Below, piece by piece: positions 5,748 through 11,718 of a stretch of 23,000 bases of DNA. The notes beneath the pieces are model-generated. The model was not told the DNA's origin, ran no database searches, and saw nothing but the letters and a program-made list of their open reading frames with translations. The stretch's first letter is position 1; the number at the start of each line of letters is the position of its first letter. A program made the translations under genes and the position numbers. Origin of the DNA: a virus; IMG/VR virus record IMGVR_UViG_3300025280_000184, positions 1 through 23,000 of that record; one strand, written 5' to 3'.

Positions 5748-5941
5748 TATCTCTCCACCCTCAATTTTCGGCGACGAATCGCCTTCATTATGTTCCGTTT
5801 TGGAACCTTGATTGCCTTCTTTCTTGTTTTCGCGTTTTTAGGTTTACGCCCCGAAGGGTCCCGCGACGGGCGCTCCTGGGGCTGCGCCCCCTTGAGGAAG
5901 AGGTCCAACTGGCCCGCCAGGCCCGCCTCCAGATTCTCCAT
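5747..5941 (-). CDS. Small very basic protein overlapping the end of the portal gene
   Basis: The frame opens with GTG at 5950, but I prefer the ATG at 5941, which has AGGTGAGGGGA directly upstream (64 residues). The first ~98 bases overlap the portal gene in the +1 frame, and the rest covers the otherwise empty stretch before the next gene. The protein is extremely rich in Lys and Arg (KPKNAKTRKKAIKVPKRN, IRRRKLRVER). The overlap plus start/stop coupling to the next gene supports it as real. It may bind DNA or RNA; no family was recognised. Confidence 0.55.
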   Translation of the reverse strand: MENLEAGLAGQLDLFLKGAQPQERPSRDPSGRKPKNAKTRKKAIKVPKRNIMKAIRRRKLRVER

Positions 5942-7634
5942 TCCCCTCACCTTGTCCCATTCCAGCTAGAAGTTCTTCTATCCCACCGGCGCCACCCGGC
6001 GGCTGTGCCATGGCGTCCATAATTTCATCAACTTCGTTTGGCCGCAAGTCAAATGTTCTGAGGGCACGGCGAACGATTGGGTCCAGGTGCGGCGGTATCG
6101 GCACAGGGATCTGAGCGAGATAGCCAGTAAGCGTAAGCATATCGGCCCGCTCCTGAGCGCGATCCTGAAACGCAGTCGAACCCGTTACAATATCTATTTC
6201 CGAGTTTTCCGGGAGTTCAGACGGTTTAATGGCCACCATGGACTGCCCGTTCGGCAGTACGATTTCCAATACCAGGGGTTGATCCTGAAACCTGCGGAGC
6301 ACATGATATAATTTCTCCGCGTTACGCTTCAGGAACCTCTCGTATACCTGCTGATCATCTTCGGCCCGCACCCCGCCCTGCATGGCAATCTGCTGAACTT
6401 CGGTTGCCGTGCGTTTTGTTCCCAGGGGCGTGCCGCGCTTAAAGTCATTGACTCCTATAATTTCATCAAAGTCAATGCGGCTCTGGAATTCTATGTGACG
6501 ATGTTCCGTGTTCATATTGGGCATGTGGAGCGGACGTGCGGCATCTTCCATCGGGCCCTGGTATTCACCGTCCACTTCTACGGCTACATCTGTTGAGCCG
6601 GCTTCGAGCGCTTTCTCCCCCCTGGGGGACAGCGCACCCTGCTTGGTAAGCAAGCGGGGTAAAGCGCGGCCAGCATGAGTAACAGAAAGACTGCGTAGCT
6701 TATTGATCTCGAGCTGCTGGTTTTCCACGCTTTCCGGGTCACTAATACCATAAAACATGTCGGGCACAATGATATTGGGCAGGATCTCGAACGGGAAGAA
6801 GTCGTCAAATCCAAACGGATCTTCCTCAATCATCAGCACCAGGTCATTCGGTGCTTCCGGCACAATCATGTGAACGCCAGTCTGACGGTCCCAATAGTCA
6901 TAAATAACTGCATAGCCAGGTCTGGTGGAGCTTTTCCGGGCTACTGACTGCTTTGGATCAGCCAGGTTCGCAGGGCTTAACAACCGGGGCATTTCCGTGG
7001 CAGTTGGAACAACCTTGTCAACATGCTCCCACTCCGTATTCTGCTGCAACTCTTCTATGGGAATATAAAGAACTTCGGCGCACCAGCGGGCATGTTTCAG
7101 GTTGGGGCGCGTAAGATCCAGGTCAGTCAGAAAGCGACCAGGACTCACACGGGAAAGACGGGGCTCGTCAACCCGGATCATCCCATCCTGTTCTTCCAGC
7201 CACCAGCCGATGCGGGAAATACCATAACCGAAAAGGCGTCGGTCAAGGTCCAACAGGCGTATTTCGTCCTGCGCCTGAATCCTGCGCCAGGTGGACTTCA
7301 TCAGTTCGCGGACCTTGAGCTCTTCTTCCTCCCGGCTATCGTCGTCACAACCAGGACAACGCACATAGAACTCGGGATCCTGGAAGCCAAGGGTTGCCAC
7401 CTTAATGTGGATGGATGGCATGATGCGGTTGACGACAACGAGATCAACGTCGGGAAGGTCGCCCTTTGCAGAAGCGCCTGGAGGAGTGCCCCAATGATTA
7501 CCGGTGTAATATTGGAGCATCCGGCGGTAAATACCCTTTAGCGTGGTATTGTAATACCGCAGGGCGCCGTCAATGCGGCCTCGCACTCTATGAATGTAGT
7601 CTTGTCGCGTTCTAAGTTTCTCTGTGTCAGCCAC
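5844..7634 (-). CDS. Portal protein
   Basis: 596 residues, the usual size for a portal. Family features seen: an N-terminal helical region with 'YYTGNHW' and 'VNRIMPSIHIKVATL' (portal proteins often read '.N....i...v..l'), an acidic stem segment, 'PDMFYGISDPESVENQQLEINKLRS' (typical '.yG.G....l...Q..iN.l.s' motif; listed here with its core at about residues 295-320), and a Gly/Pro-rich C-terminal tail (about residues 550-596). Twelve copies form the ring through which DNA enters and leaves the head. It follows a set of small genes after terL rather than terL itself. The start is a GTG with only a weak ribosome binding site and a 12-bp palindrome just upstream. Confidence 0.88.
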   Translation of the reverse strand: MADTEKLRTRQDYIHRVRGRIDGALRYYNTTLKGIYRRMLQYYTGNHWGTPPGASAKGDLPDVDLVVVNRIMPSIHIKVATLGFQDPEFYVRCPGCDDDSREEEELKVRELMKSTWRRIQAQDEIRLLDLDRRLFGYGISRIGWWLEEQDGMIRVDEPRLSRVSPGRFLTDLDLTRPNLKHARWCAEVLYIPIEELQQNTEWEHVDKVVPTATEMPRLLSPANLADPKQSVARKSSTRPGYAVIYDYWDRQTGVHMIVPEAPNDLVLMIEEDPFGFDDFFPFEILPNIIVPDMFYGISDPESVENQQLEINKLRSLSVTHAGRALPRLLTKQGALSPRGEKALEAGSTDVAVEVDGEYQGPMEDAARPLHMPNMNTEHRHIEFQSRIDFDEIIGVNDFKRGTPLGTKRTATEVQQIAMQGGVRAEDDQQVYERFLKRNAEKLYHVLRRFQDQPLVLEIVLPNGQSMVAIKPSELPENSEIDIVTGSTAFQDRAQERADMLTLTGYLAQIPVPIPPHLDPIVRRALRTFDLRPNEVDEIMDAMAQPPGGAGGIEELLAGMGQGEGNGESGGGPGGPVGPLPQGGAAPGAPVAGPFGA

Positions 7635-7693: not shown

Positions 7694-7813
7694 TTATTGT
7701 CCAATAAAACGCCCCATCGTAAATCCTAAGAGCCAAATTCCTACTGCCCCCAAAATCGACCAGAAAAAATGAATGGCACAACGGCTATGTTCTTGATTGC
7801 AGCACTTCTTCAT
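7694..7813 (-). CDS. 39-residue single-pass membrane peptide with N-terminal Cys motif
   Basis: I found this small frame by hand. Its ATG at 7813 overlaps the TGA at 7812-7810 of the upstream frame (ATGA), the usual sign of coupled translation. The N-terminus is MKKCCNQEHSRCA, with three Cys and a His. It is followed by one hydrophobic stretch (about residues 14-37, IHFFWSILGAVGIWLLGFTMG) that should span a membrane. The gene ends before the portal gene. A Cys-rich head with a single membrane anchor may bind metal or be acylated. No family is known to me, and the role is unknown. Confidence 0.55.
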   Translation of the reverse strand: MKKCCNQEHSRCAIHFFWSILGAVGIWLLGFTMGRFIGQ

Positions 7814-7867
7814 CCACACACACTCCCCAAAATGGCCTGGGCAACTCCCAGGTTATCAGCATGAGCT

Positions 7868-8065
7868 TCAATTAGGGGGGAACGCATCCTCTTCCCTGGG
7901 GGGAACACCTGGGGCCAGTTGAGAATCATTCTCAACTGGAGATTCCAGGGGCCGCACCCATCTTTCTTGTTTCGCGTCCCACTTGCGCTCGTAATATTTC
8001 CTGCCGTCTTTTGATTGTTCGTCCACACCATACCAAAACTGAAAATAACCTTGTTTCAAGTCCAC
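7868..8065 (-). CDS. Small hypothetical protein, possibly frameshifted at a C6 run
   Basis: 65 residues from a GTG at 8065 that overlaps the end of the FmdB-like gene. The residues FWYGVDEQSKDGRKYYERKWDAK read like a real charged, aromatic protein. The frame ends with PPN at 7868, just after the run CCCCCC. In the +1 frame, translation can continue for about 25 codons (LIEAHADNLGVAQAILGSVCG) to a TGA at 7810 that is perfectly coupled to the next small gene. The joined product would be about 88 residues. Either programmed slippage, a sequencing indel at the homopolymer, or a separate 25-residue gene starting at 7887 would explain this. Confidence 0.5.
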   Translation of the reverse strand: MDLKQGYFQFWYGVDEQSKDGRKYYERKWDAKQERWVRPLESPVENDSQLAPGVPPREEDAFPPN

Positions 8066-8319
8066 CGTCCACCTTTCCAGGGCGTAAACTCCCCTGACTT
8101 GCGTTTTGCGGCAATTAACTCTTCGTCCTCGGGTTGAACAAGGTCAGATCGCTCTACCCGGAACGAACGCGGAACCTGGATTGTCATGCTCCTGTAGTTC
8201 TGGACTCTCTCCAGCGCTCCACCGCAATTGCAAGTCTGGACGGTGTTACGGTCACGACACTGCAACAACCTTTCGTCATTTGCCTGACATTGACGGCATA
8301 CGAATTCGTAATTTGGCAC
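8056..8319 (-). CDS. FmdB-like zinc-ribbon protein
   Basis: 87 residues. The start MPNYEFVCRQC followed by C21 and CNCGGALERV (C30, C32) matches the FmdB / CxxC_CxxC regulatory-type zinc ribbon, whose usual pattern is MPxYEYxCxxCG...C..CGG. C8, C11, C30 and C32 are the likely zinc ligands, though the second pair is CxC instead of the more common CxxC. The C-terminal half is charged and unrelated to the family. Zinc ribbons of this kind are common in phage late regions, where their role is mostly unknown. Its start overlaps the stop of the gene before it. Confidence 0.7.
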   Translation of the reverse strand: MPNYEFVCRQCQANDERLLQCRDRNTVQTCNCGGALERVQNYRSMTIQVPRSFRVERSDLVQPEDEELIAAKRKSGEFTPWKGGRWT

Positions 8320-8636
8320 TAAGCTGAATCTCCATTGTTTTTATTCCAATTTTTATTCCATATGTCCGAAACCTTTTCATAATCTTTCCGTTCCAGTTGG
8401 GGCTGATATGCCGTTGGATTTAAACGCCCCATACATTTCGGACACCTGGGAAGGGCATACCATGTTTCAGTGGAAAAACTATAAATTTGCATCGTTTTCA
8501 GGCAGGTTTCGCACCATGTTTCAATAAGGGGTCGTGCTACCACCTTATTGTTAAAGTTTTCCACCTCGGCTTCTGCGAAAATTTCAACAAGTGGACGACC
8601 TGGTTGCCGGTCCGTATCACTTTTTGGCTTCCACAT
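8319..8636 (-). CDS. Zinc-ribbon protein
   Basis: I chose the ATG at 8636 (105 residues), because GGGAGGCGG lies about 10 bases upstream. A longer frame begins at a TTG at 8669 but lacks such a site. Two Cys pairs, CETC (42/45) and CPKC (65/68), are spaced like a treble-clef or rubredoxin-like zinc knuckle. A run of Asn/Lys/Trp closes the protein. It could bind nucleic acid or a protein partner. It forms a tight pair with the FmdB-like gene. Confidence 0.65.
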   Translation of the reverse strand: MWKPKSDTDRQPGRPLVEIFAEAEVENFNNKVVARPLIETWCETCLKTMQIYSFSTETWYALPRCPKCMGRLNPTAYQPQLERKDYEKVSDIWNKNWNKNNGDSA

Positions 8637-8687
8637 GTGCTTTCCGCCTCCCTGTCTGGATGCCCGCAATATTGTCGCTTAATTGGC

Positions 8688-9263
8688 TCAATCTGGTTTC
8701 CCATGCAGGTGTATTACCTTTATGACCTTTTTATCAATGCGGAACGCTGAAACTGCACCTATCTTGCGCGAATCATAAGATTCGAGCCAGTTGTCGCCAA
8801 ATAACAGAACCTCATTATTGTAGTGATTGAATACCGCAATACGCTTAACCCAATACTCTTCCTGCCCATCAGTGTCCTTTACGTGAACAGACACAATGTC
8901 GCCGGTCTGAAGTTCATCTACTTCCTGGACCCACCGATAAATAATAAGGTCATACCGGTCATGGAGTGTGGGCTCCATCGAACGCCCGTTCCCCATTGTG
9001 TAAGTAATGTGAAACTGCTGGCTATAAGCCCAGATAGCGATGAAAACCGTGACCAGGAACAAGCCTCTCCAAACATTTATCGCTGGCCACCGGTATTGCC
9101 GAAATAATCTACACCACCTGATCTCCGTTACAAGCAGAGTGAAAATTATAGCAAAAACAGTCAGGACAAGCAATACACCCATGACTGATGATGCCGAATC
9201 CGCAATAATACCCTCGACAAGTTTTGCGATAAGTCTTGCAATGTATGGCCCCGTAACATCCAT
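8688..9263 (-). CDS. Signal peptidase I-like membrane protease (family S26)
   Basis: 191 residues. Two hydrophobic segments (about 26-46 and 66-82) come first, then the four S26 boxes in order: GRSMEPTL with the nucleophile Ser95; DLIIY...LQTGDIVSVHV (105-127); the general-base Lys140 in YWVKRIAV; and LFGDNWLESYDSRKIGAV (154-171), the diagnostic GDN...S.DSR..G box. This is the full Ser/Lys dyad protease that removes signal peptides on the outer face of the cytoplasmic membrane. Its normal substrate is exported preproteins. In this late phage operon it may mature a phage membrane or secreted protein, or act on host secretion. The start has only a weak ribosome binding site and the gene follows a small membrane protein gene. 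Confidence 0.88.
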   Translation of the reverse strand: MDVTGPYIARLIAKLVEGIIADSASSVMGVLLVLTVFAIIFTLLVTEIRWCRLFRQYRWPAINVWRGLFLVTVFIAIWAYSQQFHITYTMGNGRSMEPTLHDRYDLIIYRWVQEVDELQTGDIVSVHVKDTDGQEEYWVKRIAVFNHYNNEVLLFGDNWLESYDSRKIGAVSAFRIDKKVIKVIHLHGKPD

Positions 9264-9272
9264 AAGGACTGC

Positions 9273-9518
9273 CTATGAAAAGTAAGATCCGAAGGGCCAC
9301 CAGGAGTCGCCCGTTAGCCACCGGGCGAAAACAACAACGACCCAACACATGCCCGTTAGTGTGCCCATGATGAGAAGCATCATAACAAGCGATACGAATA
9401 CCATTAAAGCGCGTTCGAGTCCTGTCACTTTTGGTGGCTCCATCAGGAAAATACGCTTTCCTTTCATGAAAGGGCGTCTTGCACCTAATCGGCGGCGTCT
9501 GTTAGGCCCAACCAGCAT
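9273..9518 (-). CDS. Small membrane protein
   Basis: 81 residues, with AGGGGAGAG 5 bases before the ATG. The N-terminus is basic (RRRRLGARRPFMKGKR). It is followed by one long or two short hydrophobic segments (about 36-68, ALMVFVSLVMMLLIMGTL then CWVVVVFARWL) and a short polar tail. The basic head would stay in the cytoplasm. It might be a holin-like protein or a partner of the signal peptidase encoded immediately downstream. Neither can be shown from sequence; no catalytic or family motif was seen. Confidence 0.65.
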   Translation of the reverse strand: MLVGPNRRRRLGARRPFMKGKRIFLMEPPKVTGLERALMVFVSLVMMLLIMGTLTGMCWVVVVFARWLTGDSWWPFGSYFS

Positions 9519-9599: not shown

Positions 9600-9974
9600 C
9601 TAAATCAATCGGTGAATACGTGATTGCACCATGTCAAGTGCCGCCTTCAGGCAACGGTGTGCTTTGGATTTTGAGATGCCCAGACCGGCATAACCAGTTT
9701 CTATCAACCCATCAGCCATCTCCCTGACCGTGTAACCCAACATGTGTGCATCGAATACTTTTCTTTCCAGGTTGGACATTTTACCCCGTGCCTGGTCAAT
9801 CGCCACCCGGTATAACGCCTCGGACTCCACATCGAGCGTCTCCGTATCGGGCTTTAAGTCCAAATCCGCAGGTGCTACCGGCTCTTCCACCAGGACGAGC
9901 GCGGGGCGCAGGGCGTCCGAGTCATGAAATCCTGCCGTAATTGAAGGCTTTGCGTCCTTTTCTGACTCCCGCAT
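9600..9974 (-). CDS. Sigma-70 region 4-like helix-turn-helix protein
   Basis: 124 residues. The C-terminal half (MSNLERKVFDAHMLGYTVREMADGL then ISKSKAHRCLKAALDMV, residues 66-117) follows the sigma region 4 pattern: 'L....R.V..L...G.T..EIA..L..S...V...L..A...L'. It is a helix-turn-helix that in sigma factors binds the -35 element. There is no region 2, and the first 60 residues are acidic and probably disordered. It may therefore be a transcription regulator of late genes that binds core RNA polymerase or DNA, not a full sigma factor. It lies just after terL and a zinc ribbon gene. AAGGA precedes its ATG. Confidence 0.65.
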   Translation of the reverse strand: MRESEKDAKPSITAGFHDSDALRPALVLVEEPVAPADLDLKPDTETLDVESEALYRVAIDQARGKMSNLERKVFDAHMLGYTVREMADGLIETGYAGLGISKSKAHRCLKAALDMVQSRIHRLI

Positions 9975-9977
9975 TGG

Positions 9978-10163
9978 TTAATCCTTGTGCGGCGATGGTT
10001 TCCCTAACAGCCCAGGGAAACCATCCCGCATGCGGACATAACTTACTCCCCAACATTGCCAGCACTTGAGCTCCACCCACCCCTGATAGCGCTCTGATAT
10101 GTCCGAATGATAACGCGCTTTCTTGCGACACCAGCAACAGATCATAATGGGGCTAGTGGCCAT
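9978..10163 (-). CDS. Small zinc-ribbon protein
   Basis: 61 residues. Its start overlaps the last codons of terL by about 11 bases. Two Cys groups, CCWC (9-12) and CWQC (34-37), 22 residues apart, suggest one zinc ribbon; Trp and aromatic residues fill the space between. It is the first of three zinc-ribbon genes in the late operon. The exact function is unknown. Confidence 0.65.
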   Translation of the reverse strand: MATSPIMICCWCRKKARYHSDISERYQGWVELKCWQCWGVSYVRMRDGFPGLLGKPSPHKD

Positions 10164-11718
10164 GCCCTATCAGGAACCGCCGTTTGGTTTTCGTTGCTGA
10201 CATTTTCTTGAAATGAGCTGTTGTCATGAATTCGGGTTCCTGAACCTGTTTATCCTTTTGACGGGTGTGTTTACGCATCTGCCATGCAATAGCCAGGGCG
10301 ATCACCCGGTCATCCGTCATGCCCTGTGGTGCTCCTGTGCTCCCATTTGGATAATGCTGGTAAGATAAGGCTTCATGTTGCAAAATATCGCTATGTATTG
10401 TCAAAAAAGAGCGTCTTATTGCCTCTTCCAACTCATCAATCATTATGGGTTTGCTTGCAGAACTTGTCAACCAACCGACCAGCCCCGCCCGCATGCGTTT
10501 TTTCTGCGTTTCCCTGGGAATTTCATAATACAAACCCTTGGTGCCCAGCTGGCGTAGGCGTAGTAGGACGGCATGTCCGTGATTCTGCCGTTCCACCCCC
10601 AATTTCCCCTGGTAACACTTCGTTACAGCATGAATTCGCTCTGCAAACTGGTCAGGTTCCCAGTGTCCCGCCATTTCCAGGACTTGCTCCCCCGACTGGC
10701 TGTCAATTACTTCTAAAGCGCTGTAATCGCCGTGCGCCAGGCCCTCCGCAGGGTCGGCACCTAATAAATAATATCGTTCGGAACGGTGACGGCGGGGTGC
10801 CTGCCAGATACGCAGGCCATCCATCCCCCGTAAGGCTTTTGGCCAGTGTATCGGATCCAATTCCGGGCGTTCTGTGGGTAACAGGTAGTCGGAACTGAAT
10901 ACGGGGCGGCCACTCTGTACAAAGGCTTCCACATCGTCACGGGGATAATTCTGATGTAGCTGGTGGGTGGAGTATTCACGTGTCATACTCCCATACCAGT
11001 CATCATCCCGGTCCGGGCGTTGCCACCATGGGAAAAATATCGGACTGAATCCGTTTTTTCCGGTTTTGGCGTCCAGGTAGGTGGTGTGGTAGAAATTACC
11101 CATACCGTTGGCAGTGCTTACGCTTACTAACTGCCCCCCTGCGTCTATAGTAGGCTTTACAGCGGCGAAATTAGCCTCTGCATAGGGGTGAAAAGCGTGC
11201 TCGTCACATACTACCACCGTGGCGGTATACCCAATACCTGCATCTTCTGTGCTCGGTAAAGCTATAATGCGAGAATTGTTAGGGAATAGCAACTGGGTCT
11301 GACTGCTGGCAAGGGGGGGGAGGGTGTGCGCCTCATCCATCCGCATGGCCTCCTTCACCTTCCGCAGGAACTCTACCGCCTCTCTCTCCCCTTTGCTCAT
11401 CAATAACACTAGGCTACTGGGCTGGAACCTCGCCACCCACAACGCATAAGCCGCCAGCGCCGTACTCACTCCAAGCTGCCTAGCTTTCAAAATACTTATC
11501 AACCGCTCGCCTTGCAGGGCAGTTGCTAGCGTCTGCTGACAGGGCCACGGCTTGAACTCAGCATGTTTCACCAAGTAGGTGCTGAACTCGCGCCTACAGG
11601 CATCCTCGCACTGCGGAGCGTCCGTGTGTGCTGTCGCTCGGAGTCTGTACGCACTCGCCCACAACTGTCTCGGCAGTGTCTCCGAAGTATGCGACACAAA
11701 GCGGCTGGCCGGATTCAT
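10153..11718 (-). CDS. terL: Terminase large subunit
   Basis: 521 residues. The ATPase domain has a classic terminase Walker A (KARQLGVST, residues 78-86), Walker B VVVCDEHAF (168-176, D172-E173) and coupling motif SVSTANG (199-205). The nuclease domain has D322 (LLGADPAEG), E376 (LGVERQNHG) and D469/D470 (MTDDRVIALA), the acidic metal-binding triad of the RNase H-like headful nuclease. It pumps DNA into the prohead through the portal and cuts it. The start ATG has GGGAG 8 bases upstream. Two terminator-like hairpins and a short tandem repeat lie between terS and this gene, so its level may be set separately from terS. Confidence 0.93.
   Translation of the reverse strand: MNPASRFVSHTSETLPRQLWASAYRLRATAHTDAPQCEDACRREFSTYLVKHAEFKPWPCQQTLATALQGERLISILKARQLGVSTALAAYALWVARFQPSSLVLLMSKGEREAVEFLRKVKEAMRMDEAHTLPPLASSQTQLLFPNNSRIIALPSTEDAGIGYTATVVVCDEHAFHPYAEANFAAVKPTIDAGGQLVSVSTANGMGNFYHTTYLDAKTGKNGFSPIFFPWWQRPDRDDDWYGSMTREYSTHQLHQNYPRDDVEAFVQSGRPVFSSDYLLPTERPELDPIHWPKALRGMDGLRIWQAPRRHRSERYYLLGADPAEGLAHGDYSALEVIDSQSGEQVLEMAGHWEPDQFAERIHAVTKCYQGKLGVERQNHGHAVLLRLRQLGTKGLYYEIPRETQKKRMRAGLVGWLTSSASKPIMIDELEEAIRRSFLTIHSDILQHEALSYQHYPNGSTGAPQGMTDDRVIALAIAWQMRKHTRQKDKQVQEPEFMTTAHFKKMSATKTKRRFLIGHGH

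What the first reader, a model, noticed from the sequence alone, without database searches (positions are those of the whole stretch)
8688..9263. A complete type I signal peptidase inside a phage head operon
All four S26 boxes are visible, with Ser95 and Lys140 as the catalytic dyad and the diagnostic GDN...DSR box, after two membrane spans. Signal peptidases are host housekeeping enzymes and are not expected between terminase and portal. Next to it are a small basic membrane protein (9273-9518) and, further on, a 39-residue Cys-rich membrane peptide (7694-7813). Together these could form a late membrane-processing unit: maturing a phage-encoded lysis or envelope protein, or changing host secretion at the end of infection. 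The function is an inference; the enzyme identity is seen directly.
Basis: partly seen in the sequence, partly recalled or inferred. Interest (0 to 1): 0.68.

Follow-up and report, generated by a model that had tools for sequence, protein, structure and literature searches.

The report
Compact signal peptidase in phage operon
A bacterial virus carries, inside its block of head genes, its own small membrane-anchored version of the enzyme that cells use to trim exported proteins; the enzyme identity is solid, a few other viruses have one too, and what it trims is still unknown.

Summary
Confirmed: 8688-9263 (minus) encodes a 191-aa family S26 peptidase between the terminase and portal genes of a tailed phage. 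Pfam Peptidase_S26 scores 48 bits. It keeps 14 of 15 columns near-invariant in 26 other S26 proteins, including Ser95 and Lys140, at 17% identity elsewhere. An AlphaFold model (pLDDT 82) superposes on SipA, LepB and SpsB. Two spans and a positive loop predict an extracytoplasmic catalytic domain, as in LepB.
Corrections: (1) it is not a copy of a housekeeping LepB but a compact S26 (Lys-to-GDN spacing 16, against 50-77 in LepB-type proteins, no G-x-P-G-D). (2) The small membrane genes are not its fixed partners: 39 of 81 related TerL-portal slots hold a Zn-ribbon plus a one-span protein, and none holds an S26. (3) It is not unprecedented: BFVD lists a 'putative signal peptidase I' in Bacillus phage BCD7, and I found three related phages sharing a compact S26 at one syntenic place, followed by membrane or exported proteins.
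Best reading: a late, membrane-anchored peptidase that trims phage-exported proteins. The substrate is not identified; no cleavable signal peptide was found in the available sequence. A role in head maturation is unlikely.

The parts
8688..9263 (-). Compact S26 (type I signal peptidase-like) peptidase, 191 aa; Ser95/Lys140 dyad; spans 27-45 and 61-79; catalytic domain about 84-191
9273..9518 (-). 81-aa basic one-span membrane protein directly upstream; its stop is 9 nt before the S26 start; predicted N-in/C-out; possible but weak cleavage site VFA|RW after residue 65
   Evidence: no family match
8319..8669 (-). 116-aa protein with CxxC pairs, downstream of the S26 gene
8056..8319 (-). 87-aa FmdB-type zinc ribbon; a Zn-ribbon gene is usual in this slot in related phages
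7868..8065 (-). 65-aa ORF, no family match
7694..7819 (-). 39-41-aa one-span Cys-containing peptide just before the portal gene
9600..9974 (-). 124-aa HTH-like protein (weak match only)
9978..10163 (-). 61-aa ORF; a 36-bp segment at about 9993-10028 is absent from the two sister contigs
10153..11718 (-). Terminase large subunit: start of the slot
5844..7634 (-). Portal protein: end of the slot

Best explanation
The gene encodes an active, membrane-anchored compact S26 peptidase. It is presumably made late with the head genes and inserts in the host inner membrane with its Ser-Lys catalytic domain on the outer face. There it would cut at the outer edge of a membrane segment, trimming one or more exported or membrane proteins that the phage makes (envelope, lysis-control or exclusion proteins) and so not relying on host LepB. 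Shown: sequence family, retained catalytic residues, predicted fold, operon position. Inferred from the positive-inside rule: topology. Inferred only: activity, late expression and substrate.
For: S26 profile match; 14 of 15 near-invariant columns kept at 17% identity elsewhere, so active-site residues appear selected; AlphaFold pLDDT 82 with matches to SpsB, SipA and LepB, VIA Z 11.2 and 10.8 over 94-99 residues; five Arg between the two spans puts the catalytic domain outside, as in LepB; same strand as terminase and portal, 9 nt from an upstream membrane gene. Elsewhere, compact phage S26 genes are kept at one syntenic position in three diverged related phages (MCP 48-54%, S26 29-46% identical) and are followed by a signal-peptide protein (SFSLA|TSG), by one- and two-span proteins, or by a protein with an N-terminal hydrophobic stretch below my span threshold. 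Precedent that phages use SPase I on lysis proteins: the T4 antiholin RI has a cleavable signal peptide (PMC8385771).
Against: No cleavable signal peptide was found by a crude scan in the available part of this phage, so no substrate is in hand. Host LepB should already do such trimming. The S26 gene is absent from all 81 other TerL-portal slots examined and from 50 related records by the Pfam model, so it is not needed by the phage group. Activity is untested.
Confidence: 0.45

Rival explanations
1. General takeover of host secretion: the phage enzyme supplements or replaces host LepB late in infection, keeping export and envelope functions going, without a dedicated phage substrate.
For: Enzyme type and predicted topology fit; no phage substrate seen in the available sequence.
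Against: The compact domain is far from housekeeping LepB; no reason known why LepB would be limiting; the S26 gene is absent from the related phages examined.
Confidence: 0.2
2. Dedicated peptidase for its own neighbour: it cleaves the 81-aa membrane protein (for example after V-F-A65) or the 41-aa peptide, in the manner of TraF with TrbC, possibly releasing a short peptide.
For: Gene adjacency with a 9-nt gap; the neighbour is one-span with a strongly basic N-terminus, so N-in/C-out, with an acceptable V-x-A at the outer edge of the span.
Against: Hydrophobic stretch of about 29 residues after a 36-residue basic region is unlike a signal peptide, and the scan does not call one; no conservation evidence is possible from three near-identical genomes.
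Confidence: 0.13
3. Cargo gene (moron) acquired by this lineage, serving host or superinfection-exclusion functions, with no role in virion production.
For: Variable slot (243 to 3603 bp among relatives), S26 only in this lineage; other phage S26s lie on the opposite strand to the structural genes, moron-like.
Against: Here it is on the same strand as, and embedded in, the head operon; no own promoter or terminator is evident beyond weak consensus matches.
Confidence: 0.17
4. Prohead (capsid maturation) protease, as its place in the head operon might suggest.
For: Position between terminase and portal only.
Against: Two membrane spans with the catalytic domain predicted outside the cytoplasm; S26 family, not a known prohead protease family (families from general knowledge); relatives with the same head genes lack it.
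Confidence: 0.03
5. Non-enzymatic remnant of a captured gene.
For: Absent from relatives; one conserved Gly (column 178) replaced by Lys.
Against: All catalytic residues and structural motifs intact at 17% background identity; intact in all three contigs.
Confidence: 0.02

Closest known systems
Type I signal peptidase LepB/SpsB (family S26A)
   Same: Ser-Lys dyad, boxes B, C and E, fold (LepB Z 10.8, SpsB Z 10.4), two-span LepB-like predicted topology
   Different: Lys-to-GDN spacing 16 instead of 50-77, no G-x-P-G-D, no domain II; 17% identity outside conserved columns
Bacillus phage BCD7 putative signal peptidase I (BFVD J9PV64, 138 aa; probably locus L165, a record of the same 93,839 bp length)
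   Same: Phage-encoded compact S26, structural match E 1.5e-5, Lys-to-GDN spacing 18
   Different: One span, Bacillus phage, lies among non-structural genes, about 25% identity
Compact phage S26 in IMG/VR contigs L133/L162, L139, L234 and L125
   Same: Same compact layout, near or inside structural (L125: tail/lysis) gene blocks, next to membrane or exported proteins in three of them
   Different: One span, mostly on the opposite strand to the structural genes, different phage groups
Nickel-SOD maturation protease (TIGR02754)
   Same: Compact S26, hit at 32.6 bits
   Different: Below the curated cut-off of 63.25 and lower than the signal peptidase I model; that it acts on nickel SOD is general knowledge, and no such gene was noticed here
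TraF conjugative signal peptidase (S26C)
   Same: Example of an S26 enzyme dedicated to one partner substrate (general knowledge)
   Different: An NCBIfam TraF model scores only about 12 bits

Membership tests
Peptidase family S26 (PF10502) | Profile match above the curated cut-off | tested here: met
   48.3 bits against 22.9, E 1.5e-12
Peptidase family S26 (PF10502) | Ser-Lys dyad in SMxPT and KR boxes plus GDN...DSR box | tested here: met
   S95, K140, GDN156-158, DSR164-166, in columns near-invariant in 26 others
Peptidase family S26 (PF10502) | S26 fold | tested here: met
   AlphaFold pLDDT 82; SipA Z 11.2, LepB Z 10.8. S24 folds (lambda CI, LexA) also score 8-10, so fold alone does not separate the two
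Bacterial signal peptidase I, equivalog TIGR02227 | Above the curated cut-off of 47 bits | tested here: not met
   44.5 bits, just short
Bacterial signal peptidase I, equivalog TIGR02227 | Long region with G-x-P-G-D between boxes D and E | tested here: not met
   Spacing 16, no G-x-P-G-D
Bacterial signal peptidase I, equivalog TIGR02227 | Membrane anchor with extracytoplasmic catalytic domain | tested here: inconclusive
   Predicted from span positions and Arg-rich loop; no experiment
Bacterial signal peptidase I, equivalog TIGR02227 | Cleaves signal peptides | not testable with these tools
   Needs a biochemical assay
S24 (LexA/CI) self-cleaving repressor | S24 profile match above cut-off and DNA-binding domain | tested here: not met
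   PF00717 20.3 bits, cut-off 23.3; membrane spans instead of a DNA-binding domain; box E GDN...DSR present
Nickel-SOD maturation protease TIGR02754 | Above the curated cut-off of 63.25 bits | tested here: not met
   32.6 bits
Phage prohead protease | Match to a known prohead protease family | tested here: not met
   No such Pfam, PHROG or NCBIfam match up to E 1

The most novel reading that the evidence does not exclude
The S26 enzyme and the one-span 81-aa protein form a phage export-processing pair: the enzyme cuts its neighbour at the outer membrane edge (for example V-F-A65|R66) and frees a short Trp-rich peptide or switches a lysis or exclusion protein. Compact phage S26 genes would then be a recurring, unrecognised class of phage-encoded maturation enzymes, each with its own exported partner.
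Probability: 0.1. Interest if true: 0.8.

Novelty: new variant of a known kind. Interest (0 to 1): 0.5.

Why it matters
Phages are generally taken to borrow the host signal peptidase for their exported proteins. A phage-encoded S26 inside a head operon, and a second phage group in which a compact S26 is kept at one syntenic place over large divergence, suggest that some phages carry their own enzyme for this step. Finding its substrate would show which exported phage proteins need private processing, and could reveal a new control point for lysis, exclusion or the envelope. The searches also show a methodological point: in the phages collection a LepB query returned only records that look like host contamination, while short compact S26s are missed by such queries.

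Tried and rejected
P0001 by tblastn: no match in 50,697 phage records; at most about 33% identity over parts in plasmids, E 0.08 or worse; no relative confirmed in a genome scan with single-protein patterns, which sees only close relatives. Related-phage survey: 0 of 50 records with PF10502. A LepB query in phages gave 27 records that look like host-contaminated assemblies (unannotated multi-contig records, 174-kb 'Acinetobacter phage' contigs); judged from the listing, not examined one by one. S26 tree: P0001 sits on a very long branch with unresolved placement, not used as evidence of origin. First AlphaFold run without an alignment was poor, pLDDT 49, and discarded. The many ~370-aa LepB proteins in 15-30 kb IMG/VR contigs look Bacteroidetes-like and were taken as host flanks without checking. 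L168 and L169 look like bacterial chromosome, not phage. S26 absence in L006/MW202803 confirmed by Pfam. Attempts to sample Pseudomonadota genomes failed for lack of a genome centre. Papers: terms for phage-, virus- or viral-encoded signal peptidase gave nothing, and other searches listed no experimental study of one; the library is open-access only.

Full report
Observation. The ORF at 8688-9263 on the minus strand is real: 191 codons from ATG, 9 nt after the stop of the 81-aa gene 9273-9518, in the same orientation as the terminase (10153-11718) and portal (5844-7634) genes. Pfam gives Peptidase_S26 at 48.3 bits and NCBIfam signal peptidase I at 44.5 bits, just under its cut-off of 47. In an alignment with 26 other S26 proteins, 15 columns have one residue in at least 90% of those 26; the window protein keeps 14 of them, including Ser95, Lys140, GDN and DSR, while being 17% identical elsewhere. 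That is not chance, and it argues that the active site is under selection.

Structure and topology. An AlphaFold run with the alignment of 27 S26 proteins gave mean pLDDT 81.9. Foldseek ranks S. aureus SpsB and S. pyogenes SipA first, and VIA-align gives SipA Z 11.2 over 94 residues, E. coli LepB 10.8 and SpsB 10.4, with S24 repressors (lambda CI, LexA) at 8-10. S24 and S26 share the fold, so the assignment to S26 rests on the sequence: the S24 profile is below cut-off, box E is present and the N-terminus is membrane. The two spans (27-45, 61-79) flank a loop with five Arg, which by the positive-inside rule puts the catalytic domain outside, as in LepB.

What kind of S26. Housekeeping LepB-type proteins in the set mostly have 50-77 residues between the catalytic Lys and GDN and a G-x-P-G-D motif. 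The window protein has 16 and no such motif. It belongs with compact S26 proteins found in some actinobacterial, archaeal and patescibacterial genomes and in a few phages. No close cellular relative was found; the scans used see only close or moderately close relatives, so this is a limited negative. Codon use lies within the phage's own range. A recent capture of a host lepB is therefore not supported.

Distribution. Only two other contigs carry this lineage, both about 99.9% identical over the shared DNA. The best annotated kin is Podoviridae ct52p938 (MW202803: TerL 36%, MCP 27%), which has no S26. TerL and MCP scans brought about 106 related loci. A Pfam search of 50 of their records found no S26, and an S26 profile run over all of them found it only in this lineage. 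In 81 other TerL-portal slots, 243 to 3603 bp long, the usual content (39 of 81) is a zinc ribbon of about 75 aa and a one-span protein of 60-74 aa. So small membrane genes in this slot do not depend on the S26, and the S26 is an addition of this lineage. The 81 loci include near-duplicates.

Other phage S26 genes. Pattern scans of IMG/VR for the GDN...DSR box plus an alignment scan found compact S26s in phage contigs: L133/L162, L139 and L234 form one phage group (MCP 48-54% identical) in which a diverged S26 (29-46%) sits at the same place, next to the same structural gene and on the opposite strand. The genes following it are a 235-aa protein with a clear signal peptide SFSLA|TSG (L162), two-span and one-span proteins (L139), and a 119-aa protein with an N-terminal hydrophobic stretch below my span threshold (L234). 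L125 is a phage contig with endolysin and holin. L165 is 93,839 bp, the length of Bacillus phage BCD7 (PMC4197329), and BFVD holds a 138-aa BCD7 'putative signal peptidase I' that is among the best structural matches. Longer S26s lie in contigs L126 (378 kb) and L150 (151 kb). Phage-encoded S26 is therefore rare but not new; I found no experimental study of one in the open-access library.

Function. Shown: S26 sequence, retained active site, fold prediction, operon position. Inferred: late expression, extracytoplasmic catalytic domain, proteolytic activity. The most likely role is trimming phage-encoded exported or membrane proteins (0.45). A scan of this phage's proteins, covering the window plus about 5.6 kb more from the sister contig, found no cleavable signal peptide; the scan is crude and the remaining genome, including lysis genes, is missing. 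T4 antiholin RI shows that a phage lysis regulator can depend on SPase I (PMC8385771). Rivals are general takeover of secretion, a dedicated pair with the 81-aa neighbour, and a moron; prohead protease and dead remnant are unlikely.

Verdict. It is a new variant of a known kind, of moderate interest because it is testable and because the compact class seems to recur in phages.

Noticed in passing
L162:4766-5899, L139:7762-9253, L234:6720-7488: Three related phages carry a compact S26 at one syntenic position on the strand opposite to their structural genes, followed by different membrane or exported proteins; one follower has a clear cleavable signal peptide.
   Followed up: partly
window:5844-11718 and related loci: The TerL-portal slot is a variable cargo site in this phage group; the usual content is a ~75-aa zinc ribbon plus a conserved 60-74-aa one-span protein with a coiled-coil-like tail (PHROG 32850 matches the L012 copy).
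   Followed up: partly
window:9993-10028: A 36-bp segment inside the 61-aa ORF 9978-10163 is absent from the two sister contigs, one of which reads a 47-aa version.
   Followed up: no
window:1-466: The window departs from the sister contig 3300025267_000173 in the first 466 bases, where that contig has a 380-aa, probably tail-fibre gene; otherwise the two are 99.9% identical.
   Followed up: no
L232:3675-5471: A 599-aa five-span protein with an S26 domain lies near what look like head genes in a 59-kb viral contig (S26 by Pfam; the head assignment is a guess).
   Followed up: no
L126, L150: Long-form S26 genes inside 378-kb and 151-kb IMG/VR contigs.
   Followed up: no
phages collection records OR846588, OR844991, CAKLQF020000007 and others: LepB-like hits in the annotated phage collection occur mostly in unannotated multi-contig or large records that look like host-contaminated assemblies.
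   Followed up: no
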